Positions 215-12,960 of a stretch of DNA of 12,960 nucleotides are shown here, piece by piece. This DNA comes from Alphaproteobacteria bacterium TMED93 (GTDB lineage: Bacteria; Pseudomonadota; Alphaproteobacteria; TMED109), in assembly GCA_002171495.2 (NCBI GenBank), contig NHEU02000063.1, positions 1-12,960 of the forward strand, read 5' to 3'. The position numbers and the translations under genes are program-made. The first letter of the stretch is position 1; every line of letters begins with the position of its first letter. The notes under the pieces are model-generated. The model was not told where the DNA came from. It was given only the letters and a program-made list of their open reading frames with translations, and did not search any database.

Positions 215-236
215 ATCAATTTTTAATATTTATAAC
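201..236. terminator. perfect 15-bp inverted repeat at the rpoN 3' end, probable terminator
   Basis: The arm GTTATAAATATTAAA (201-215) is exactly complementary to TTTAATATTTATAAC (222-236), with a six-base loop. It covers the last codons of both convergent genes, including the plus-strand stop and the rpoN stop. On the minus strand the stem is followed directly by TTTT, so it fits an intrinsic terminator for rpoN. On the plus strand there is no T tract after the stem, so termination of the small ORF is less certain. The stem is almost all A-T. Confidence 0.65.
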
Positions 237-1655
237 CTTATTTAAACGCATTAACCTTTTTCTTTCAGCCGAAGATGGAATATTGAGCATTTCTCTATAT
301 TTTGCTACTGTTCTTCTTGCAACATTTACACCCTTCTCTTTAAATATTTTAGAAATATTTTCATCACTATGAGGCTTATTTTCTTTCTCATTAGAAATGA
401 TTTCCTTTAACAATGTTCTTACAGTTTTAGCAGCATGAGCTTCATCATTTTCAGTTAAACCAACCGAACTACTAAAAAAATCTTTCATTTGAAAAAGCCC
501 CCATGGTGTCTGTAAAAGCTTTGATCTGGTAACTCTGCTTACTGTACTCTCATGCATCCCTATAGCACCAGCTACGTTTCTTAAAACTAAAGGTTTCAGG
601 TGCCCTGGTCCATTTTTAAAAAATTCTTTTTGCATTTTTAGAATTTCTACTGCTACTTTTAAAGTTGTTGAGTTTCTTTGTTCTATAGCTCTTAACAACC
701 ATTTAGCTGAATTAAATGCTTCAGAAACAAACTTTTTATCATTTTCATTCTTCTTTATTATATTATTTTTTACTTTATCTGCTAGACCTTCTTCTATTTT
801 AATAGCAGGCAAAGTCGATTTATTTAACTCCACTTTCCAACCTTTTTTAGTTTTTTCTATAACTACATCTGGCGGCTCTATTCTAAAATCATCATCAGAA
901 AATGAGGTAGCTGGTTTTGGGTTTAAACTTTTAATTATATTTATATATTCTGATAGTTTTACCTCATTAACTTTTGCAAGCTTGCATAGCTTTTGTATCT
1001 CTCCTTTAGCTAAGTATTCTAAATTATTGGTAACTATTTCAATGCTTTGATTGAATAGACCTTTTTCTTTTAATTGTAACCTTAAACACTCTCCAAGGTT
1101 TCTAGAGAACACGCCAGTTGGTTCTAATTTTTGTAGTTTCTCTAAAACATTTAATGTAATGTCTTTTTCTAAGTTATTTTTAGAGATAAATTCATCAATA
1201 TCAAAATTAATCCATCCTGTTGGCTCAATTAAATCTAAAATTAAAATTGCTATTTTTCTTTCTACTCCCTCAGGGATATCTAAAAGTATTTGTTCCATTA
1301 AGTGAGACCTTAACGTTTTTTTTGGTTCAGCTATACGATCCTCGATAGAAGAAATATCGTCATAAGAGCTACTTCTTTGCTTGCTTTGAAACCTTTCTTC
1401 CCATCTCTGATTATCTTTTTCATGATCTTCATTAAAGTCATCTTTATTGTTATTATCTTGTATCTTGGTAGTAACGTTTCTCGAAAGAATATCGCTTTTT
1501 TTATTTTCTAGAAAAGGATTTTTTTCTAACTCCTCTTCTATATAACTAGAAAGTTCTAAGTTTGAAAATTGTAGTAATTTTATAGCTTGTCTAAGTTGTG
1601 GTGTCATGACTATAGACTGACTATGTTTTATATTAAGACGTTGATTTAACTGCAT
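216..1655 (-). CDS. rpoN: RNA polymerase sigma-54 factor RpoN
   Basis: This is sigma-54, which directs core RNA polymerase to -24/-12 (GG-N10-GC) promoters and needs an AAA+ enhancer-binding activator to open them. At 479 residues it has normal length. Residues 1-50 are the glutamine- and leucine-rich activator region (SQSIVMTPQLRQAIKLLQFS). Residues 50-110 are a charged, low-complexity region II. A core-binding region follows, then the promoter-binding helix-turn-helix (VAGAIGMHESTVSRV), and finally the RpoN box ARRTVAKYRE at 446-455, which reads the -24 element. The ATG is preceded by an ideal AGGAGG (1661-1666). It is transcribed away from the small membrane-protein gene and ends in a strong hairpin. 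No enhancer-binding activator is encoded in the window. Its presence fits the -24/-12 sites seen before pomA and in the glycan island. Confidence 0.98.
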   Translation of the reverse strand: MQLNQRLNIKHSQSIVMTPQLRQAIKLLQFSNLELSSYIEEELEKNPFLENKKSDILSRNVTTKIQDNNNKDDFNEDHEKDNQRWEERFQSKQRSSSYDDISSIEDRIAEPKKTLRSHLMEQILLDIPEGVERKIAILILDLIEPTGWINFDIDEFISKNNLEKDITLNVLEKLQKLEPTGVFSRNLGECLRLQLKEKGLFNQSIEIVTNNLEYLAKGEIQKLCKLAKVNEVKLSEYINIIKSLNPKPATSFSDDDFRIEPPDVVIEKTKKGWKVELNKSTLPAIKIEEGLADKVKNNIIKKNENDKKFVSEAFNSAKWLLRAIEQRNSTTLKVAVEILKMQKEFFKNGPGHLKPLVLRNVAGAIGMHESTVSRVTRSKLLQTPWGLFQMKDFFSSSVGLTENDEAHAAKTVRTLLKEIISNEKENKPHSDENISKIFKEKGVNVARRTVAKYREMLNIPSSAERKRLMRLNKVINIKN

Positions 1656-2630: not shown

Positions 2631-3407
2631 ATGGATATAGCATCTTTAATAGGTTTATTAGGAGCAGCAGGAATGATAGCTGGAGCAATGATTTCAGCAG
2701 GAGGACTGGGAATGTTTATAGATGTTCCTTCTATGCTTATTGTTTTTGGAGGAACATTTTTTTGTGTTATGTATAGATGTGAACTCCCACAGTTCTTAGG
2801 CCATTTTGGAGTAATGGGAAAAGTATTTATGCCTGGAAAAAGAAATGCGGAGGAATTAATTACAAGAGTTTCTGAATTAGCAACAATTGCAAGAAAAGAC
2901 GGTATGATGGCTTTAGAAGGTCAAGAGGTTCCTGATAAATTTTTTGAAAAAGGTTTGCAAATGTTAGTAGATGGAGCAGATGAAGCTAAACTTAATGAGC
3001 AAATGCAAATTGAATTGGCTGCAATGAAAAAAAGACATGAAATGAATCAAGCGGTTATAGGATCATGGATTGATATAGGACCTGCTATGGGAATGATAGG
3101 AACACTAGTTGGATTAGTTGCTATGCTTGGAAATATGGCTGACCCTAAAGCTATTGGACCTGCAATGGCCGTTGCTCTTTTAACTACATTATATGGTGCT
3201 ATGTTAGCAAACGTTATCTTTTTACCCATGAAAATTACTTTAGAACAAAATACTGCAAAAGAAGTGGTGTTTAGAGAAATGATTCTTTCATCTTTGAGAG
3301 CAATTTCAAGAGGAGAAAGTCCTAGAAATATTCAAGACCAATTACTAGCTAATCTTCCTCCTAAACAACAAGAAAAAATTGAAGCTGCTGCATCGGCAGC
3401 AGGATAA
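2631..3407 (+). CDS. pomA: flagellar motor stator subunit PomA (MotA family, sodium type)
   Basis: This is the A subunit of the flagellar stator, which with PomB forms an inner-membrane ion channel and pushes on the rotor protein FliG. It is 258 residues long, close to Vibrio PomA. Two helices lie in the first 50 residues. A cytoplasmic domain follows, with the charged residues known for rotor contact (Arg88, Glu96, Glu99), then two helices from about 150 to 200. The segment PAMGMIGTLVGLVAML and the following DPKAIGPAMAVALLTTLYGA are near-identical to my recollection of Vibrio PomA. Asp31, Thr158 and Thr186 fall at the same numbers as PomA residues linked to sodium conduction. This supports, but does not prove, a sodium-driven motor. 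It is the first gene of the operon, and pomB follows after 15 bases. Confidence 0.95.
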   Translation: MDIASLIGLLGAAGMIAGAMISAGGLGMFIDVPSMLIVFGGTFFCVMYRCELPQFLGHFGVMGKVFMPGKRNAEELITRVSELATIARKDGMMALEGQEVPDKFFEKGLQMLVDGADEAKLNEQMQIELAAMKKRHEMNQAVIGSWIDIGPAMGMIGTLVGLVAMLGNMADPKAIGPAMAVALLTTLYGAMLANVIFLPMKITLEQNTAKEVVFREMILSSLRAISRGESPRNIQDQLLANLPPKQQEKIEAAASAAG

Positions 3408-6069: not shown

Positions 6070-6085
6070 TGGCATTTTAATTGCA
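6070..6085 (+). promoter_or_regulatory. sigma-54 (-24/-12) promoter of the first glycosyltransferase gene
   Basis: TGGCATTTTAATTGCA matches the sigma-54 consensus TGGCAC-N5-TTGCW at all but the last base of the -24 box. Spacing is exact: GG 6071-6072, ten bases, GC 6083-6084. With C as -12, transcription should start near 6096, seven bases before the ATG at 6103. The 12 bases TATGGCA(T/C)TTTA and the following ATTGCAAA are shared with the promoter of the paralogue at 11637, whereas the flanking spacer is not. Confidence 0.85.
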
Positions 6086-6102
6086 AATTCAATAATAATA
6101 AT

Positions 6103-7155
6103 ATGACAGAATATTCTTTAAGTATATGTATACCAAGTAAGAGAAGTCTAGAGGAGTCAAGAGCAAGTATTTCCTCTGCAATAGGTTTCTGTGATATTAC
6201 TGGTTCTGAATTAGTAGTTTCTGATAGTTCAGGAGAAAAAAATAAATCTGAAATGTGGAACAATATCCCTCTACCATTTATGAATTATTTAAAGAATGAA
6301 AATAAGAAAGAGTCTAAATGGAGTGATAATTGGTATAATGGCATTCAAAATTGTTCTGGGAACTTTATTGGTGTGGTAAGTGATGATGACATAATTGTTA
6401 ATTTAGAAAAAAGTGTAGTAGATTATAAGGAGATAAGTCAAACAGATTTAGCTGGAATTAAACCAATAATATCTCTCTGGAACTCAAAACAAGGTATTTA
6501 TGAATTAAATAATTTTAATATTAATGGAAATACAGCTATAGAAAGGATAAAGCAATATCACGACCTATCTGCGGGTAATAATACTACCTATTATTCCTTT
6601 TTTAAAAAAGAAATACTGAACGATATTTATAAATTATTAACATATCATCCTACTAAAGGAGGTTATCTAGATTGGCCTATAGCAAGGGCTTGTGTAGCAA
6701 GTGGGAAGGTCTTGACTGATGAAACAAAGCTTTTAGTATATAAAAATAATAATTGGTTTGGAGACCAAGAGTTTATTAATAAACAGGCTATGAAACTTTA
6801 TGAAGATTGTGACCTAGGTGTAATAGGATGTTATATGTCTGATCTTTTTCATGCTTTGGATACTTTTATATTAATTATGAGAAAAAAATCTAATGTACCT
6901 TTTGATGAAAAACTAGAGGCTGCAGAATATGCCCTTGATTTTCATCTTAATAGATTAATAGATAATTATAATAGAGGCCCGCATTTTTTTAAACAAGTTG
7001 CAAATGAAATAGAAAAAATCAATATTGAAGAAAATATAGCATTAAAATTAAAAAGCGCTTTAAACATATTAAAGGTACAGTTTCCAAATTTAGTTAACGA
7101 TTATTTATTATTTTATGAAAAATCTACAGAGTCTAAATGGGGAGATATTGATTAA
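6103..7155 (+). CDS. GT-A fold glycosyltransferase (family 2-like), first paralogue
   Basis: This 350-residue protein is predicted to transfer a sugar from a nucleotide donor. The N-terminus is GT2-like: beta strand YSLSICIPSKR, the nucleotide-contacting Asp41 in VVSDSSG, and the metal-binding DxD region SDDD at 93-96 within FIGVVSDDDIIV. The C-terminal half (about 150-350) is helical and has no motif I know. I see no membrane helix, so it is probably cytoplasmic. The frame is open back to 6046, but I place the start at 6103. The paralogue starts at the same MTEYSLSIC, and the -24/-12 promoter lies inside the would-be extension. There is no Shine-Dalgarno. The gene converges on the transketolase operon. 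Donor and acceptor are unknown; flagellin or another surface protein is a guess from context. Confidence 0.85.
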   Translation: MTEYSLSICIPSKRSLEESRASISSAIGFCDITGSELVVSDSSGEKNKSEMWNNIPLPFMNYLKNENKKESKWSDNWYNGIQNCSGNFIGVVSDDDIIVNLEKSVVDYKEISQTDLAGIKPIISLWNSKQGIYELNNFNINGNTAIERIKQYHDLSAGNNTTYYSFFKKEILNDIYKLLTYHPTKGGYLDWPIARACVASGKVLTDETKLLVYKNNNWFGDQEFINKQAMKLYEDCDLGVIGCYMSDLFHALDTFILIMRKKSNVPFDEKLEAAEYALDFHLNRLIDNYNRGPHFFKQVANEIEKINIEENIALKLKSALNILKVQFPNLVNDYLLFYEKSTESKWGDID

Positions 7156-7326
7156 TATAAGTATTTTTTTATAAGTATAACTTTGATACCAAATACTTTA
7201 TATTTTTCTAATATTCTTCTAAAACAAAGAAGTTATTTCCTATATTTGTATTATTTATTAAAAACTAAGTTCAAAAAAAGATCATTCTTGAAAAATTTAG
7301 TTACATATGGAATACGTACTTTTTAT

Positions 7327-7347
7327 ACTTATATATTAATTATAAGT
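7327..7347. terminator. AT-only hairpin at the 3' end of the transketolase operon, weak terminator candidate
   Basis: ACTTATA (7327-7333) and TATAAGT (7341-7347) form a seven-base-pair stem with a seven-base loop. On the plus strand it is followed by TTTTCATTTTTTTT, so it could end transcription coming from the glycosyltransferase gene at 6103. The minus-strand stop codon at 7336 lies in the loop. Only A-T and two G-C pairs hold it together. A second weak pair, AAGTATTT (7159-7166) and AAATACTT (7191-7198), lies just after the glycosyltransferase stop. Nothing else is evident in the 180-base convergent spacer. Confidence 0.3.
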
Positions 7348-8211
7348 TTTCATTTTTTTTAAAATATTCTCCTCTGAGGAAACCATATTCGTTGTCTCAA
7401 TAGGCAAAGCTAAACTTTGAATTTTTCTATTAGTGCCAGAAATTTGTAAAGATTCTATTAACCAGGAACCAAATCCACAATCATAGAGATGGTCTTCCAC
7501 AGTAATAATGCTGCTAAATTTGCTTGCAATAGACCTTTGTTTTTTTTTTTCACTCATACCCCATATAGGCAAAGTAAATATATCCTTATTTTTAAACCTT
7601 TCAATATTATTCATTACCCATTTTAAGCTAGTTCCTGTAGAGAGCACTACATTTTCATGACCTTTATTTAAAGACAAAGGGTACCATTTTCCTGGAATAA
7701 TGTTTTTTTTATTAACTGTATATTTATGTTCATTATTTATTCCTAATCTCAAATAAGAAGGTTGTGGATTTTTGGTTAAATAGTTTAATACACTTTTTAC
7801 TTCATTCAAGTCTCCAGGAGATGCTATTTTGAAGTTAGGCATCATCCTCATTAACCCGTAATCTTGTATAGCATGATGCGAATATCCTAAATTTCCATAA
7901 CCAACTCCTCCTCCTACGCTTACTACTGTAACAGGCAGATTATGGTAGTCTACATCATTTCTTATTTGTTCTGCACATCTAAAAGTAGGAAAGTTTGCAA
8001 TAGAATATGTAAAAACATGATATCCTTCAGATGCCAACCCTGCTGCTATACTTGTCATATTTTGTTCAGCTACACCTACATTAAGAAATCTATCAGGAAA
8101 ATAATTTTTAAACTTTTCTACAACATTGTAGCCAACATCCCCAACTAATAAAAAAATATTTTTATTTTCTTTAGCAAGTTCAGTCAAATGATTAATAAAT
8201 GTACGTCTCAT
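7336..8211 (-). CDS. transketolase-like enzyme, C-terminal (pyrimidine-binding) subunit
   Basis: This 291-residue subunit carries the second half of a split transketolase. Residues about 1-160 are the pyrimidine-binding domain. Glu49 in GVAEQNMTSIAAGLASEG corresponds to the family glutamate that activates the thiamine ring, and NYHNLP/VTVVSVGGGVGYG-type segments follow. Residues 170-291 form the transketolase C-terminal domain (STGTSLKWV, TVEDH). It pairs with the upstream ThDP-subunit gene, with which it shares a 4-bp ATGA overlap, and the two should form an alpha2beta2-type enzyme moving a two-carbon ketol unit. Its place behind an amino-sugar aminotransferase and a formyltransferase argues for a role in building a special sugar rather than in the pentose phosphate pathway. 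A 1-deoxyxylulose-5-phosphate-synthase-like activity cannot be excluded. Confidence 0.88.
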   Translation of the reverse strand: MRRTFINHLTELAKENKNIFLLVGDVGYNVVEKFKNYFPDRFLNVGVAEQNMTSIAAGLASEGYHVFTYSIANFPTFRCAEQIRNDVDYHNLPVTVVSVGGGVGYGNLGYSHHAIQDYGLMRMMPNFKIASPGDLNEVKSVLNYLTKNPQPSYLRLGINNEHKYTVNKKNIIPGKWYPLSLNKGHENVVLSTGTSLKWVMNNIERFKNKDIFTLPIWGMSEKKKQRSIASKFSSIITVEDHLYDCGFGSWLIESLQISGTNRKIQSLALPIETTNMVSSEENILKKMKTYN

Positions 8212-9020
8212 AAAATTAGCTCTTTTACTGCCTGATCAAATTCAATCTTATTAGGGTTTTTATAATGCCACTCTACCTTATTCTCCATAAATGATATTCC
8301 TTTTCCTTTTAAAGTATTAGCAATTATACATTTTGGTTTTCCTTTAGAAGACTTACAAGTTAGTAAAACTTGTTCTATGCTTTTATAATTATGCCCATCA
8401 ATCTCATACACATTCCAGCCAAAACTCAAAAATTTATCTTTCATAGGTTCTATACCTAGAGTATTTTCTACACTGTCAAAACTTTGTAACTTATTATAAT
8501 CAATTATTAATATTAAATTATCTAATTTATGGTGTGATGCAAAAAGAATAGCTTCCCAATTACTTCCCTCTGCCATTTCACCATCACTATTAATTACATA
8601 AATATAGTTTGAAAGTTTTTTTCTTTTTTTAGCGACAGCCAACCCACAAGCAATAGGTAATCCATGCCCTAAAGAACCAGTAGAAAATTCAACGCCTGGT
8701 ACTTTGTGAGAAGCATGAGCCATAAAATTTGAATTATCGCTACCATATTCTAATAACTTTCTTTTAGAAAAATATCCTACATTTGCCAAAACTGCATATA
8801 AAGCAGCAGCAGCATGACCTTTGCTTAAAATAAAAATGTCTCTATCCGATAAATAAGGCTTATTTGGATTAAATTTAATTATTTTTTTTCCATATAATAC
8901 TGCTAGTAAATCAACAATAGATAAGCAACTTGCAATATGAGAAGATTTTGAATTAAAAATCATTTTTAATAAATCTAATCTAATTTTATTAGCAAGCTTT
9001 TTTATTACTTTGTTTGACAT
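8208..9020 (-). CDS. transketolase-like enzyme, N-terminal (ThDP-binding) subunit
   Basis: This 270-residue subunit binds the thiamine diphosphate (ThDP) pyrophosphate and magnesium. Family histidines are present: His28 (SSHIASCLS), His69 (LSKGHAAAALYA) and His119 (GSLGHGLP). The ThDP motif is INSDGEMAEGSNWEA (from 143) ending in DYN (174-176), so Asp146 and Asn176 are kept. The usual first glycine of GDG is serine (Ser145). The length equals the N-terminal half of a full transketolase, and the C-terminal subunit follows with a 4-bp overlap, so the split is natural rather than a frameshift. It follows the formyltransferase gene after five bases. The exact ketol donor and acceptor are unknown; an amino-sugar or sugar-nucleotide precursor is inferred from the operon. 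Confidence 0.9.
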   Translation of the reverse strand: MSNKVIKKLANKIRLDLLKMIFNSKSSHIASCLSIVDLLAVLYGKKIIKFNPNKPYLSDRDIFILSKGHAAAALYAVLANVGYFSKRKLLEYGSDNSNFMAHASHKVPGVEFSTGSLGHGLPIACGLAVAKKRKKLSNYIYVINSDGEMAEGSNWEAILFASHHKLDNLILIIDYNKLQSFDSVENTLGIEPMKDKFLSFGWNVYEIDGHNYKSIEQVLLTCKSSKGKPKCIIANTLKGKGISFMENKVEWHYKNPNKIEFDQAVKELIL

Positions 9021-9025
9021 TTAAG

Positions 9026-9778
9026 TTAGTGATTAAGTGTTAAATTTATATAAACTTTTTTTCCTTCTTCTTCAAAATATGCAAAAGATTTTTTTCCAAA
9101 ACTTCTTGCCCTTAATATATTTATAAAGTCTTTTACAATTACTTTTTTATTTAAATCTATATGATCATATTTATTAACATCTTCTTTCTTTTTAAATGAA
9201 GAATATCTTTTTCTTTGCTTAAATGGTTTTATTTGGTCATTCTTAATTTTTTTCCAATTTTTTTTAAATAGTTTAACAATTTCAAATTGTAATCTTTTAT
9301 ATAAATCCTTAGCATTATCTGTAGCCATGCGGTCAACTTTTTTCTGGACCCATATTTTCCCTGTATCTGCACTTTCATTTAGCTCATGAAGGCTAACACC
9401 ACTTTGAGTGTTTTCTATTATATTATATACGTGCGGATACCAACCTCTGTAAGAAGGAAGCAGTGATGGATGAAAATTAATAGTTTTTTTTGACAATGAA
9501 TAAAGTTTTTTATTTAATAACCACGGCCAAAAAATTGTAATTACACAGTCAATATTAAGTTTTTTAAAAAAATCTATATGTTTATCAGTTTCGTAGCTTT
9601 TCCTACCATAAAATATTCTTTTATATTTTATACCCGCTAAGTCTATCATTTTTTTTTCTAAGCTAGATTCATCTCCAGTTAAATATAGAACTGAAATTTC
9701 AAGGTTTTTTTGTTTAGTAAGAAATTTTAAAACATCTAACCCTGGTTTATGGCTTACAAATAATGCAACTCTATACAT
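9026..9778 (-). CDS. formyltransferase of the sugar N-formyltransferase/Fmt type
   Basis: This 250-residue enzyme is predicted to move a formyl group from 10-formyltetrahydrofolate to an amine. The catalytic triad of the family is complete: Asn101 and His103 in NFHPSLLPSYRG, and Asp138 in ADTGKIWVQ. A reduced C-terminal domain ends in RARSFGKKSFAYFEEEGKKV, similar to the end of Fmt and sugar formyltransferases. It is shorter than housekeeping Fmt (about 310). That, together with its operon position between an aminotransferase and a split transketolase, favours a nucleotide-linked amino sugar as substrate over methionyl-tRNA. The frame is open to a TTG at 9793 that overlaps the upstream stop. 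I prefer the ATG at 9778 because AGGGA lies about seven bases before it. The gap to the upstream gene is then 11 bases. Confidence 0.88.
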   Translation of the reverse strand: MYRVALFVSHKPGLDVLKFLTKQKNLEISVLYLTGDESSLEKKMIDLAGIKYKRIFYGRKSYETDKHIDFFKKLNIDCVITIFWPWLLNKKLYSLSKKTINFHPSLLPSYRGWYPHVYNIIENTQSGVSLHELNESADTGKIWVQKKVDRMATDNAKDLYKRLQFEIVKLFKKNWKKIKNDQIKPFKQRKRYSSFKKKEDVNKYDHIDLNKKVIVKDFINILRARSFGKKSFAYFEEEGKKVYINLTLNH

Positions 9779-9789
9779 AAAATTCCCTA

Positions 9790-11475
9790 TCAATTAAAAT
9801 ATGAGTTTATTTTTTCACAAATATATTTAACTTCATTTTTTGTTAAATTAGTTCCACTTGGCAGGTTTAAAGAAGAACATCCAATCATTTTTGCAATATT
9901 ATTGGTTATATATTTTTTATTCCATATGGGATATTTGCTAATTGGACTAAAAACTGGTCTGCTATCAATATTATTTTTTTTTAAGTATTCAATTAATCTA
10001 TCTCTTTTTTTATAACTATTATTATTTATAGAAGCACTAACCATCCAATAATTAGAATAAGTATAATCTTTTTCTTCTAATAAAGATAAATAGATATTTT
10101 TTTGCAAAAATTCTTTATACCAATTAAAAATTCTCCTCTTCATCAATATCATATCAGTAACTCTTTCCAACTGACCTAAGACGAAGGCTGCCTGAATATT
10201 AGATATTTTATATTTTAAACCAGGACCATCAATCCAGAAGGTTTTATTAGGATTTCTTCCATGGTCAGATATTTTTTTAGCTATTTTATATAATTTTAGA
10301 CTATTAGTGCACAACATACCTCCCTCTCCAGCAACCATTAGCTTTGCGCCTTGAAAACTAAAGGCGGAAAAGTCTCCAACGGTTCCACATCTTAGGCCAT
10401 TGTAAGAAGATCCAATTGCAGGGGCTGCATCCTCAACTAAACTAATTTTATATTTTGATGATAACTTTTTTAGTTGAGTTAAATTAGCAGGATTTCCATA
10501 TAAGTGAACAGCAATTATTGCCTTTGTTTTTTTTGTAATTAATTTCTCTATTGAGAGTACATCTATGTTCCAACTATCTTTTTCAATTTCAGCAAAAATT
10601 GGCGTTCCTCCTAAATAAGATACTACTCTTGCTGTTGCAACCCATGTTATATCTGGAACTATTACTTCATCACCCTCTGAAATATTTAGCGACTGCATAG
10701 CTATATGTAACGCACCTGTACAGCTAGAAGTACTGATGGCATATTTTACTCCAATATATTTTGCAAAGTTTTTTTCTAAATCTAAAATAGAACTATTCCA
10801 ATTTTTATTCCAACCATGTTTCACTGCATCTAATGTTTTTAAAGATTCTGATAATGAAACAGATGGTCCAGCAGTAAGTATTATTTTTTTACCTATTTGT
10901 TGTTTCTCTCCCTGCCAATAAAAGTAATTATAAGGTTTGGTAAAAAATGCTGCATTGATATTTTTCTTAAAACCTAATTTTTTAAAGAATTGTTCTTTCT
11001 TAGAATTATTTTTTTCTATTAATATTTGAAAATTATTAATATAAAAGGTCTTTCTAAAATACTCTAATAAATTTATAACAGCATTACTTAAAATTTTATG
11101 AGATTTACCTCTAACATAATCAATTTTATTGATATAAATACTTTTTTTCTGATGTAAATAAATTAAACTAATTAATGCTAAAAAAGAACCTTCTTGATTA
11201 GCAACCACAAACCTTATATTAGATTTTTTGGATTTGTTCGTATTGTTAATATAGTGAAAGTTATAAAAAGTATTAAGGTCTAAACTTTGTAACTTAGTAT
11301 TAAAAGGAACTAAAAAATATTTTTTATTAAACACAATAGACTTCATCCAAAGCTCTTGTATATTAGAAATATTTTTAAAAAATAAAAAAAAATCCTTTTC
11401 TTTAGTCTTAGGCTTTTTTGATCTATCGTAATTATTTTTGGTTATAATATTATTTTTTTCATTCAAATGCAGCAT
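9790..11475 (-). CDS. fused GNAT acyltransferase-like domain and DegT/DnrJ/EryC1 sugar aminotransferase
   Basis: This 561-residue protein combines two domains. Residues about 85-175 look like a GNAT acyltransferase: strands around IRFVVANQEGSFLALI, an acyl-CoA loop remnant RGKSHK (122-127) and the typical end NNSKKEQFFKKLGFKK. Residues about 195-561 are a PLP-dependent DegT family aminotransferase, which converts an NDP-keto sugar to an amino sugar. It has SSCTGALHIA (251-260) for the PLP phosphate, Asp349 in VEDAAPAIGS, and the Schiff-base Lys378 in FSFQGAKLMVAGEGGM, closest in style to perosamine-type synthases. A TTG at 11490 would extend it five residues. However, it lies inside the -12 box of the promoter, and the predicted transcription start falls on the ATG at 11475, which I chose. 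It is the first gene of the four-gene operon. No sugar dehydratase is present in the window to supply its substrate. Confidence 0.88.
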   Translation of the reverse strand: MLHLNEKNNIITKNNYDRSKKPKTKEKDFFLFFKNISNIQELWMKSIVFNKKYFLVPFNTKLQSLDLNTFYNFHYINNTNKSKKSNIRFVVANQEGSFLALISLIYLHQKKSIYINKIDYVRGKSHKILSNAVINLLEYFRKTFYINNFQILIEKNNSKKEQFFKKLGFKKNINAAFFTKPYNYFYWQGEKQQIGKKIILTAGPSVSLSESLKTLDAVKHGWNKNWNSSILDLEKNFAKYIGVKYAISTSSCTGALHIAMQSLNISEGDEVIVPDITWVATARVVSYLGGTPIFAEIEKDSWNIDVLSIEKLITKKTKAIIAVHLYGNPANLTQLKKLSSKYKISLVEDAAPAIGSSYNGLRCGTVGDFSAFSFQGAKLMVAGEGGMLCTNSLKLYKIAKKISDHGRNPNKTFWIDGPGLKYKISNIQAAFVLGQLERVTDMILMKRRIFNWYKEFLQKNIYLSLLEEKDYTYSNYWMVSASINNNSYKKRDRLIEYLKKNNIDSRPVFSPISKYPIWNKKYITNNIAKMIGCSSLNLPSGTNLTKNEVKYICEKINSYFN

Positions 11476-11485
11476 GCTTATGATT

Positions 11486-11501
11486 AGCAATTAATATGCC
11501 A
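11486..11501 (-). promoter_or_regulatory. sigma-54 (-24/-12) promoter of the aminotransferase operon
   Basis: Read on the minus strand, 11501 to 11486 is TGGCATATTAATTGCT. It has exact GG-N10-GC spacing (GG at 11500-11499, GC at 11488-11487) and a full TTGCW box. With C as -12 the start site falls at 11475, the A of the aminotransferase ATG, so the message should be leaderless. It is divergent from the promoter at 11606, and 104 bases lie between the two -24 boxes. Confidence 0.82.
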
Positions 11502-11605
11502 TATACTGCTAAAAAAGCTCTCTTAAATCTTTCATATGTGTTTGTTGTGACTTTAATAAAAAAAGGTTTTGAAGCACTGATAATCTTTTTATAACTTTCT
11601 TTATA

Positions 11606-11621
11606 TGGCACTTTAATTGCA
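11606..11621 (+). promoter_or_regulatory. sigma-54 (-24/-12) promoter of the second glycosyltransferase gene
   Basis: TGGCACTTTAATTGCA matches the consensus TGGCAC-N5-TTGCW completely, with GG at 11607-11608 and GC at 11619-11620 (ten bases between). The predicted start near 11632 leaves a five-base leader before the ATG at 11637. The 104 bases between this and the divergent promoter (11502-11605) are AT-rich with no obvious palindrome that I can call an enhancer site. Confidence 0.88.
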
Positions 11622-11636
11622 AACTATTTTATTAAA

Positions 11637-12695
11637 ATGACTGAATATTCTTTAAGTATATGTATGCCAAGCAAAAGAGGTTTTGATGAGTCAAGAGCAA
11701 GTATTTCCTCGGCTATAAACTTTTGTGATAGTACAGGTTCTGAATTAGTGATATCAGATAATTCTGGAAGCTCTGATAAATTAAAAATGTGGAATCAAAT
11801 TCCTCTTCCTTTTATGAAATACTTAAGCAATAAAAAAAATGAAAATTTATTGTGGAGTGATAATTGGTATAACGGTATGAAGAATTGTTCTGGAAGTTTT
11901 ATAGGCATAGTGAGTGATGATGATATTTTAGTAAATATTGATAAAAGTGTTTTAGAATATAAAGACATAAAATATGAGGATATTGTAGGAATAAAACCTA
12001 TAATATCATTATGGAATTCACAAGTAGGCGTATACAAACAAAATAATTTCAATATAAATGCTAATACCGCAGTAGATAGAATAAAACAGTATCAAGACTC
12101 AAATAAAGGAAATAATACTAGTTATTTTACGTTCTATAGAAGTAAAATTATTAAGGATATCTTCAAATTATTAAAATATCATCCTACTCAGGGAGGTTAT
12201 ACTGATTGGTCTATAGTTTTAAGTTGTGTAGCAAGTGGAAAAATTCTAGTTGACCCAACAAAACAACTTATTTACAAAAATAGTAACTGGTTTGGAGACG
12301 CTGTTTATATAAAAAAACAAATAAGTAAACTTTATATAGAATGTGGTTTAGAAGAAAAAGGAGTTTTGATTGCCTCTCTACTTGATGCTTTAGATTCATT
12401 TATTTTAATTATGAGAGAAAGCTCAAATCTTGCTATTGATGAGAAACTTGAAGCAGCTGATTATGTATTAAATACTAAAATTAATCAATTTATTAATAAT
12501 TTTAATATTACTGTCTATCATAAATTTCCTGATGTTATTAAAAACAAAGTAGAAATTCTTAAAGCAGAAAATAAAATTGATAAAAAACTTGATATTTGCC
12601 TTGAAATAATATCCTCATTTTTTCCTTCATTAAAAGATAAATATAAAAAATTCTATAAATATTCTACAAATTTGGAATGGGGAAATTTAATTTAA
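11637..12695 (+). CDS. GT-A fold glycosyltransferase (family 2-like), second paralogue
   Basis: This 352-residue paralogue of the gene at 6103 aligns without gaps over the first 100 residues, with 72 identities by hand count. It keeps SLSICMPSKR, Asp41 in VISDNSG, and the metal-binding SDDD at 93-96. The middle is also close (GIKPIISLWNS, GNNTSYF, YHPTQGGYTDW, NWFGD), but the last 70 residues or so diverge, which suggests a shared donor type with a different acceptor or partner. Only a few bases separate the predicted start site from the ATG, and no Shine-Dalgarno exists. It is divergent from the aminotransferase operon and converges on a partial gene at the right edge. The short spacer (12696-12733) holds only an AT palindrome at 12696-12709. 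Biological acceptor unknown. Confidence 0.87.
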   Translation: MTEYSLSICMPSKRGFDESRASISSAINFCDSTGSELVISDNSGSSDKLKMWNQIPLPFMKYLSNKKNENLLWSDNWYNGMKNCSGSFIGIVSDDDILVNIDKSVLEYKDIKYEDIVGIKPIISLWNSQVGVYKQNNFNINANTAVDRIKQYQDSNKGNNTSYFTFYRSKIIKDIFKLLKYHPTQGGYTDWSIVLSCVASGKILVDPTKQLIYKNSNWFGDAVYIKKQISKLYIECGLEEKGVLIASLLDALDSFILIMRESSNLAIDEKLEAADYVLNTKINQFINNFNITVYHKFPDVIKNKVEILKAENKIDKKLDICLEIISSFFPSLKDKYKKFYKYSTNLEWGNLI

Positions 12696-12733: not shown

Positions 12734-12960
12734 TTACTGGGATTTTATATTTTTATGATTAGTTTCATCATATCTATCTATAGCCGTGTTTATTAAATTT
12801 AACATATTATAGTCTAACAAAACGGATCTTCTAGCTTCTCTGATATTCATGATGTTAATTATATCTGGGTTATTTATTGCTTTATCAATAACCTCAAAAC
12901 TATCGCTATAATTATTAATATCTATTGAAATGAATGAACCTTTATCAAAATAACTATCAA
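12734..12960 (-). CDS. 3' end of a gene entering from the right edge, possibly a glycosyltransferase
   Basis: The minus strand has an open frame of 74 codons from the window edge to a TAA at 12734-12736, with no start codon needed inside the window. The translation includes YFDKGSFISIDINNYSDSF, then NIREARRSVLLDYNMLNL near the end. From memory, this pattern (FI.IDI.N followed by an EARR..L..YN helix) resembles the C-terminus of some surface-carbohydrate glycosyltransferases, for example family 10-like proteins, but the fragment is too short to be sure. Its presence suggests the glycan locus continues beyond the window. The frame looks coding: no internal stop and a balanced residue mix. Confidence 0.6.
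   Translation of the reverse strand, partial: DSYFDKGSFISIDINNYSDSFEVIDKAINNPDIINIMNIREARRSVLLDYNMLNLINTAIDRYDETNHKNIKSQ

What the first reader, a model, noticed from the sequence alone, without database searches (positions are those of the whole stretch)
6070..11637. A sugar-modification island in which every transcription unit has its own sigma-54 promoter
Three -24/-12 sites with exact GG-N10-GC spacing and TTGC boxes sit immediately before the three transcription units of the island: 6070 (+), 11501 (-) and 11606 (+). One is a full consensus match. Chance placement at all three gene starts is very unlikely. Sigma-54 commonly runs late flagellar genes, and rpoN and the stator operon are a few kb away, so the island may be a flagellum-timed glycosylation system. 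The promoters are seen directly; flagellin as target is inference.
Basis: partly seen in the sequence, partly recalled or inferred. Interest (0 to 1): 0.82.

Follow-up and report, generated by a model that had tools for sequence, protein, structure and literature searches.

The report
Sigma-54-driven flagellin sugar gene island
In an uncultured marine bacterium, a block of sugar-making genes beside flagellum genes carries the same special promoters as the flagellum genes, so the cell very probably makes sugars to decorate its tail while it builds the tail; this is a new case of a known arrangement.

Summary
All three -24/-12 sites match TGGCAYNNNNNTTGCW exactly (Markov shuffles of the window average 0.02). 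They recur before the same genes in same-genus genomes that keep the gene start (4 of 4, 3 of 3, 3 of 3, own genome included), while upstream flanks fall to 50-58% identity. In four relatives the motif occurs 56 times against 0 for the reversed pattern, largely before flagellar genes (flgB, flgG, fliG, fliK, fliS, large flagellin). In five genomes the activators found with a GAFTGA-type loop lie in the flagellar cluster. In relative G002 the island runs on to a flagellin gene and flgL-K-J-I-H; six of its eight units carry the site (two with one mismatch). A small flagellin unit and an epimerase unit lack it. Best reading: a flagellin-glycosylation island under the flagellar sigma-54 programme. 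That principle is published (Xanthomonas gigX, Helicobacter). New here: separate sigma-54 promoters for most units, predicted leaderless or near-leaderless mRNAs, lineage-restricted enzymes, and sigma-54 sites before TPR-fused GT41 and sulfotransferase genes. Against exclusivity: one exact site precedes a PII gene. Target, sugar and transcription starts are unproven.

The parts
6070..6085 (+). sigma-54 promoter of glycosyltransferase gene GT_A (predicted +1 6096, leader 7 nt)
   Evidence: exact TGGCAYNNNNNTTGCW; present before the orthologue in G001, G002, G003
11486..11501 (-). sigma-54 promoter of the degT-fmt-tktN-tktC operon (predicted +1 = 11475, the A of the ATG: leaderless)
   Evidence: exact motif; 16/16 identical in G002 and G003; distance 12 nt in 3 of 3
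11606..11621 (+). sigma-54 promoter of glycosyltransferase gene GT_B (predicted +1 11632, leader 5 nt)
   Evidence: full consensus; 15/16 identical in G002 and G003
6103..7155 (+). GT_A: GT2-like glycosyltransferase, paralogue of GT_B
   Evidence: 58% identical to GT_B; no Pfam match of its own at E<=0.001; family model has a GT-A fold
7336..8211 (-). tktC: C-terminal half of a split transketolase
   Evidence: PF02779 E 1.6e-27
8208..9020 (-). tktN: N-terminal half of a split transketolase
   Evidence: PF00456 E 1.7e-39; PDB 6yak, split-chain transketolase, E 4.7e-64
9026..9778 (-). fmt: sugar N-formyltransferase (ATG 9778 preferred over the listed TTG 9793)
   Evidence: PF00551 and PF18216; PDB VioF 4yfv E 1.3e-20; start by alignment with relatives
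9790..11475 (-). degT: DegT-family sugar aminotransferase with an N-terminal GNAT-like extension of about 190 aa
   Evidence: PF01041 E 2.2e-99, Acetyltransf_3 E 0.0013, below cut-off; PDB putative perosamine synthetase 3dr7 E 2.4e-68; extension found in only 2 further proteins
11637..12695 (+). GT_B: GT2-like glycosyltransferase
12734..12958 (-). C-terminal end of a GT10-like glycosyltransferase, cut by the contig end
   Evidence: 82% identical to a 310-aa protein of G002 with PF00852 E 2.8e-10
216..1655 (-). rpoN (sigma-54)
   Evidence: PF04552, PF04963, PF00309; RpoN box ARRTVAKYRE read in the translation (motif recalled)
2631..3407 (+). motA stator gene
   Evidence: PF01618
3423..4580 (+). 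motB stator gene
   Evidence: PF13677 and PF00691
2564..2579 (+). weaker sigma-54-like site before motA, two mismatches
   Evidence: TGGTCTCATAATTGCT in 4 of 4 same-genus genomes, 52-59 nt before the start

Best explanation
The window holds the stator/rpoN-side half of a flagellin-glycosylation island. Shown by sequence: near-consensus sigma-54 promoters stand before each of its three units and are conserved in congeners; the same motif precedes rod, switch, export, hook-length and flagellin genes; the activators found with an intact GAFTGA-type loop are encoded in the flagellar cluster; in G002 the island continues without break to a flagellin gene and flgLKJIH. Inferred: while the basal body is being built, the flagellar activators open these promoters through sigma-54. 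The cell then makes (i) a CDP-3,6-dideoxyhexose-type sugar (RfbF-RfbG-RfbH-like enzymes, in G002 next to a TPP enzyme; a TPP or split-transketolase step may add a two-carbon branch) and (ii) an N-formylated 4-amino sugar (DegT fusion plus VioF-like formyltransferase). The soluble GT-A-fold enzymes GT_A and GT_B transfer them to flagellins in the cytoplasm before export.
For: Exact sites against shuffles; conservation with drifting flanks; 56 motif matches against 0 for the reversed pattern in G001, G002, G003, G005 and 115 against 12 at up to one mismatch in the own genome; of the 18 exact sites of G002, 7 precede flagellar genes (flgB, flgG, fliG, fliK, fliS, large flagellin twice) and 4 precede island units; GAFTGA-type loops in 2 flagellar-cluster activators in each of G000-G003 and one in G005, absent from the NtrX-like protein of the four relatives; island contiguous with flagellin and flgL/flgK; enzyme assignments; no flippase, polymerase or exporter family among 16 island proteins scanned. 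In the more distant relative G005 the GT orthologue, rfbF and a NeuB-like gene also have sites, with one mismatch each, next to flagellins.
Against: No transcript, glycan or mutant data. One exact site in G002 lies 78 nt before a PII gene and one inside a clpP-like gene; one in G003 lies inside a tail-fibre-like ORF. PF00158 matches weaker than E 1e-40 were not inspected for the loop, apart from one in G000. G002 and G003 are nearly identical in the right half of the island, so '3 of 3' there is really two independent comparisons. The small flagellin of the island itself lacks a sigma-54 site. Genomes G000, G001 and G005 are 72-79% complete.
Confidence: 0.85

Rival explanations
1. The island makes an LPS O-antigen or capsule sugar and merely lies next to flagellar genes.
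For: CDP-dideoxyhexose, formylated amino sugar and DegT/transketolase genes are common in O-antigen clusters (recalled). The closest PDB matches of fmt and degT, VioF and perosamine synthetase, are such enzymes.
Against: No Wzx, Wzy, ABC exporter or ligase family among 16 scanned island proteins; promoters shared with the flagellum; position between motAB and flgLKJIH with a flagellin gene inside.
Confidence: 0.08
2. The sites are real sigma-54 promoters but answer a non-flagellar signal such as nitrogen.
For: An exact site 78 nt before a PII gene in G002; NtrX-like proteins are present in G001, G002, G003 and G005.
Against: The NtrX-like protein has no GAFTGA-type loop in 4 of 4 relatives inspected, so it should not activate sigma-54 (rule recalled); the intact activators lie between flagellar genes.
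Confidence: 0.05
3. The motif matches are chance or a by-product of AT-rich sequence.
For: Loose forms such as GG-N8-TTGC are common in the window (11 places), and a few exact matches lie inside genes.
Against: 0 of 2000 shuffles reach 3 exact matches; 56 against 0 in relatives; position before gene starts and conservation across species.
Confidence: 0.01

Closest known systems
Xanthomonas oryzae RpoN2/FleQ-regulated flagellin glycosylation island gigX1-gigX10 (passages of review PMC8657755; the primary paper was not held)
   Same: A multi-gene flagellin-glycosylation set placed in the RpoN-dependent class, ahead of the FliA-dependent flagellin.
   Different: Different class of bacteria. Here several units have their own -24/-12 site and the predicted leaders of four of them are 0-7 nt. 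How the gigX promoters are arranged was not seen by me.
Helicobacter pylori flaB-jhp0106 operon and epsilonproteobacterial RpoN-dependent glycosylation enzymes (passages of PMC5368276; PMC3930126)
   Same: A flagellin glycosylation gene driven by sigma-54 together with middle flagellar genes.
   Different: There one gene behind a flagellin promoter; in that paper only jhp0106, not pseB/C/G/H/I, fell strongly in the csrA mutant. Here the sugar-making genes themselves have sigma-54 sites.
Caulobacter FlmG, a TPR plus GT-B flagellin glycosyltransferase (passages of PMC7591256)
   Same: An alphaproteobacterial cytoplasmic flagellin O-glycosyltransferase; its TPR domain binds flagellins, comparable to the TPR-GT41 gene beside the G002 flagellins.
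   Different: GT_A and GT_B have no TPR part and a GT-A fold.
Plesiomonas legionaminic acid genes between polar flagellar regions (passages of PMC4481668)
   Same: Sugar genes located between flagellar regions in a bacterium with sigma-54 flagellar regulators.
   Different: Nonulosonic acid route; no NeuB-like gene was seen in the genus island, although one occurs in G005.

Membership tests
sigma-54 (-24/-12) promoter | GG-N10-GC with TGGCAY and TTGCW boxes | tested here: met
   3 of 3 window sites exact
sigma-54 (-24/-12) promoter | position before gene starts and conservation between species | tested here: met
   4 of 4, 3 of 3 and 3 of 3 orthologues, own genome included; sites 14-16 of 16 identical while flanks are 25-29 of 50 against G002
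sigma-54 (-24/-12) promoter | rpoN and a GAFTGA activator encoded in the genome | tested here: met
   rpoN in the window; two activators in G000
sigma-54 (-24/-12) promoter | transcription start 12 nt after the -12 C, dependent on sigma-54 | not testable with these tools
   needs RNA and genetics
sigma-54 (-24/-12) promoter | upstream activator-binding element | tested here: inconclusive
   7-mer search in 17 upstream regions: best ATGAGTC in 4 of 17, z 5.1 against a largest null of 4.2 in 20 shuffled sets
flagellin glycosylation island | sugar-nucleotide and glycosyltransferase genes at a flagellin/flagellar locus | tested here: met
   G002: motAB - island - flagellin - flgLKJIH
flagellin glycosylation island | co-regulation with the flagellum | tested here: met
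   shared sigma-54 motif; sequence evidence only
flagellin glycosylation island | flagellin shown to carry the glycan | not testable with these tools
   no protein data
Wzx/Wzy or ABC-type O-antigen/capsule cluster | flippase, polymerase or exporter genes in the cluster | tested here: not met
   no such Pfam family among 16 island proteins scanned
glycosyltransferase family 2 (GT-A fold) | GT-A fold | tested here: met
glycosyltransferase family 2 (GT-A fold) | curated Pfam GT2 cut-off | tested here: not met
   GT_B 20.1 bits against 23.3; GT_A no match at E<=0.001

The most novel reading that the evidence does not exclude
In this marine lineage sigma-54 is essentially a filament programme: besides the flagellum it drives a whole set of filament-modifying enzymes. 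These are the island plus TPR-fused enzymes (a GT41 O-GlcNAc-transferase-like protein beside three flagellins, two sulfotransferases, and in G003 a 2OG-Fe(II) oxygenase as second gene), so that flagellins would be glycosylated, sulfated and hydroxylated. The core island genes would be expressed from leaderless mRNAs made directly at sigma-54 promoters, one step ahead of a FliA-dependent small flagellin.
Probability: 0.27. Interest if true: 0.68.

Novelty: new variant of a known kind. Interest (0 to 1): 0.47.

Why it matters
It extends sigma-54-timed flagellin glycosylation, known from Xanthomonas and Helicobacter, to uncultured marine alphaproteobacteria with 1.3-1.7 Mb assemblies, and shows that promoter motifs alone can assign a sugar island to the flagellar programme. 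The separate promoters, predicted leaderless messages and TPR-fused sulfotransferase and oxygenase genes under the same motif give direct, testable predictions about filament chemistry in open-ocean bacteria.

Tried and rejected
Chance matches: rejected. O-antigen/capsule and nitrogen control: kept as weak rivals.

FliA (sigma-28)-like motif TAAA-N14/15-GTCGTNT, derived after the fact from the flagellin/epimerase intergenic region: it occurs as a divergent pair there in 3 of 3 genomes (G000, G002, G003), and fliA is encoded (FliA_WhiG 205.5 bits over the 189.6 cut-off). Genome-wide, however, it is NOT enriched: 5, 9 and 5 matches against 17, 30 and 21 for the reversed pattern. 'Sugar first, small flagellin later' is therefore a lead only. 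The large flagellin in G001, G002, G003 and G005 has two exact sigma-54 sites upstream, which also weakens a simple two-step timing.

Upstream activator element: 7-mer search inconclusive. Relatives of the glycosyltransferases outside the family: 46 proteins at E<=0.001, without genomic context; 1 of 385 class genomes at E<=1e-20, the own one; genome contigs gave three congeners and two rhizobial loci at 27-30% identity, whose ORF maps by my simple caller showed no recognisable flagellar genes but are unreliable in GC-rich DNA. The formyltransferase likewise: 1 of 385, the own one (the congeners were not in that sample). Paper searches for flagellin + N-formyl + transketolase, flagellin + sulfotransferase and FlmG with that exact phrase returned nothing; those for AEGEAN-169/HIMB59 flagella gave listings that I did not open; the sigma-54 + leaderless search was seen as a listing only. 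Names recognised by eye without an HMM: the clpP-like gene, the tail-fibre-like gene and flgJIH in G002. The rule that +1 lies 12 nt after the -12 C is recalled.

Full report
What is there. All match TGGCAY-N5-TTGCW; 0 of 2000 Markov shuffles of the window hold three such matches (mean 0.0235). The window is a complete 12,960-base contig of a 1.41-Mb, 75%-complete assembly.

Wider island. In G002 the same block continues with the GT10-like gene, an acetolactate-synthase-like TPP enzyme (422 bits, below the 538 equivalog cut-off), an epimerase, a HAD hydrolase, and three genes above NCBI's cut-offs for RfbH, CDP-glucose 4,6-dehydratase and glucose-1-phosphate cytidylyltransferase. Then come a 263-aa flagellin (PF00669 45.3 bits), a second epimerase with a 167-aa ORF, and flgL-K-J-I-H. 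In G000 the flagellin/flgL side is contig C49.

Conservation of the promoters. GT_A: exact site in 4 of 4 genomes with the gene start (G000-G003). DegT operon: 3 of 3. GT_B: 3 of 3. G001's contig ends inside degT, so it cannot be scored for the last two. Epimerase-344: 2 of 2 exact. TPP enzyme: 2 of 2 with one mismatch. RfbF: 3 of 3 with one mismatch. Flagellin-263 (G000, G002) and epimerase-311 (G000, G002): none. Against G002 the sites are 14, 16 and 15 of 16 identical while the 50 nt upstream are 25, 29 and 27 of 50. Against G001 and G003 the GT_A flank is still 45 of 52 and 39 of 50. G002 and G003 are nearly identical in the right half, so they count as one comparison there. In G005, another genus of the family, the GT orthologue, rfbF and a NeuB-like gene have sites with one mismatch, and the large flagellin has two exact ones.

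The regulon. Exact matches: 14, 18, 15 and 9 in G001, G002, G003 and G005, with 0 reversed-pattern matches in each; in G000, 115 against 12 at up to one mismatch. The 18 sites of G002, the most complete genome (97%): 4 island units; flgB, flgG, fliG, fliK, fliS and the large flagellin (two sites); a TPR-GT41 gene, two TPR-sulfotransferases (one site 119 nt upstream) and a TPR gene; a transglycosylase-like gene; a PII gene (78 nt upstream); and one inside a clpP-like gene. The last two speak against a purely flagellar regulon. In G003 one exact site lies inside a tail-fibre-like ORF.

Activators. PF00158 gave 5, 6, 6, 7 and 5 matches in G000, G001, G002, G003 and G005. GAFTGA-type loops (GAFTGA or GSFTGA) were found in two neighbouring flagellar-cluster genes in each of G000-G003 and in one in G005, whose second gene contains unread residues. 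The NtrX-like protein lacks the loop in 4 of 4 relatives. Matches weaker than E 1e-40 were not inspected, except one in G000 with no loop found. So the factors able to drive these promoters appear to be flagellar.

Leaders. With +1 placed 12 nt after the -12 C (recalled rule), 9 of 25 tabulated promoters have leaders of 0-7 nt and no Shine-Dalgarno-like motif: GT_A, degT, GT_B (two genomes each), the TPP enzyme, and the transglycosylase-like gene (two genomes). The other 16 have 11-107 nt, 8 of them with a Shine-Dalgarno-like motif. DegT is predicted leaderless in 3 of 3 genomes.

Co-occurrence. 5 of 116 relatives (own included) have the glycosyltransferase; all five have rpoN and flagellin genes. 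rpoN is found in 22 of 27 other family members; the five without are 54-61% complete. As rpoN is common, this is a weak test.

Known work. A review passage places ten flagellin glycosylation genes of Xanthomonas oryzae in the RpoN2/FleQ class, before FliA-dependent flagellin (PMC8657755). H. pylori jhp0106 falls 92% in an rpoN mutant (PMC5368276, abstract and passages). A review lists glycosylation enzymes among epsilonproteobacterial RpoN genes (PMC3930126, passages). FlmG's TPR domain binds flagellins (PMC7591256, passages). So the principle is known, and this is a variant.

Verdict. Observation confirmed, interpretation supported. Sigma-54 promoters: near certain from sequence. Flagellar timing: very likely. 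Flagellin as acceptor: likely, inferred. Exact sugars: speculative.

Noticed in passing
L110:6026-8962(+), L117:621-2630(-), L124:1149-3194(-), L127:3903-5501(+): Exact sigma-54 sites precede TPR-fused GT41 and sulfotransferase genes in G002; in G003 a TPR-2OG-Fe(II) oxygenase is the second gene after such a site. They are candidate filament modifiers.
   Followed up: partly
L047:12391-17733(-), L052:5141-10483(+), L122:3646-8178(-): Giant hook-region proteins: FlgK-like of 1780 aa in both G000 and G002, and an FlgE-like protein of 1510 aa in G002.
   Followed up: partly
window 9790-11475 (-): The N-terminal extension of about 190 aa on the DegT aminotransferase, weakly GNAT-like, was found in only two other database proteins.
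   Followed up: partly
L123:4392-4407(-): An exact sigma-54 site 78 nt before a PII gene in G002, although no NtrC-type activator with an intact loop was found among those inspected.
   Followed up: no
L113:2632, L114:919, L115:2678: A TAAA-N14-GTCGTTT motif also lies between the same two unknown ORFs in G000, G002 and G003.
   Followed up: no
G000 contigs C31/C57 and C5/C10: Several contigs of the assembly carry the same genes in opposite orientation (overlapping or redundant contigs), so genome-wide counts in G000 are slightly inflated.
   Followed up: no
L048 and L046/L047: G002 and G003 are nearly identical from degT rightwards but differ at GT_A and rpoN, which may point to recent exchange of part of the island.
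   Followed up: no
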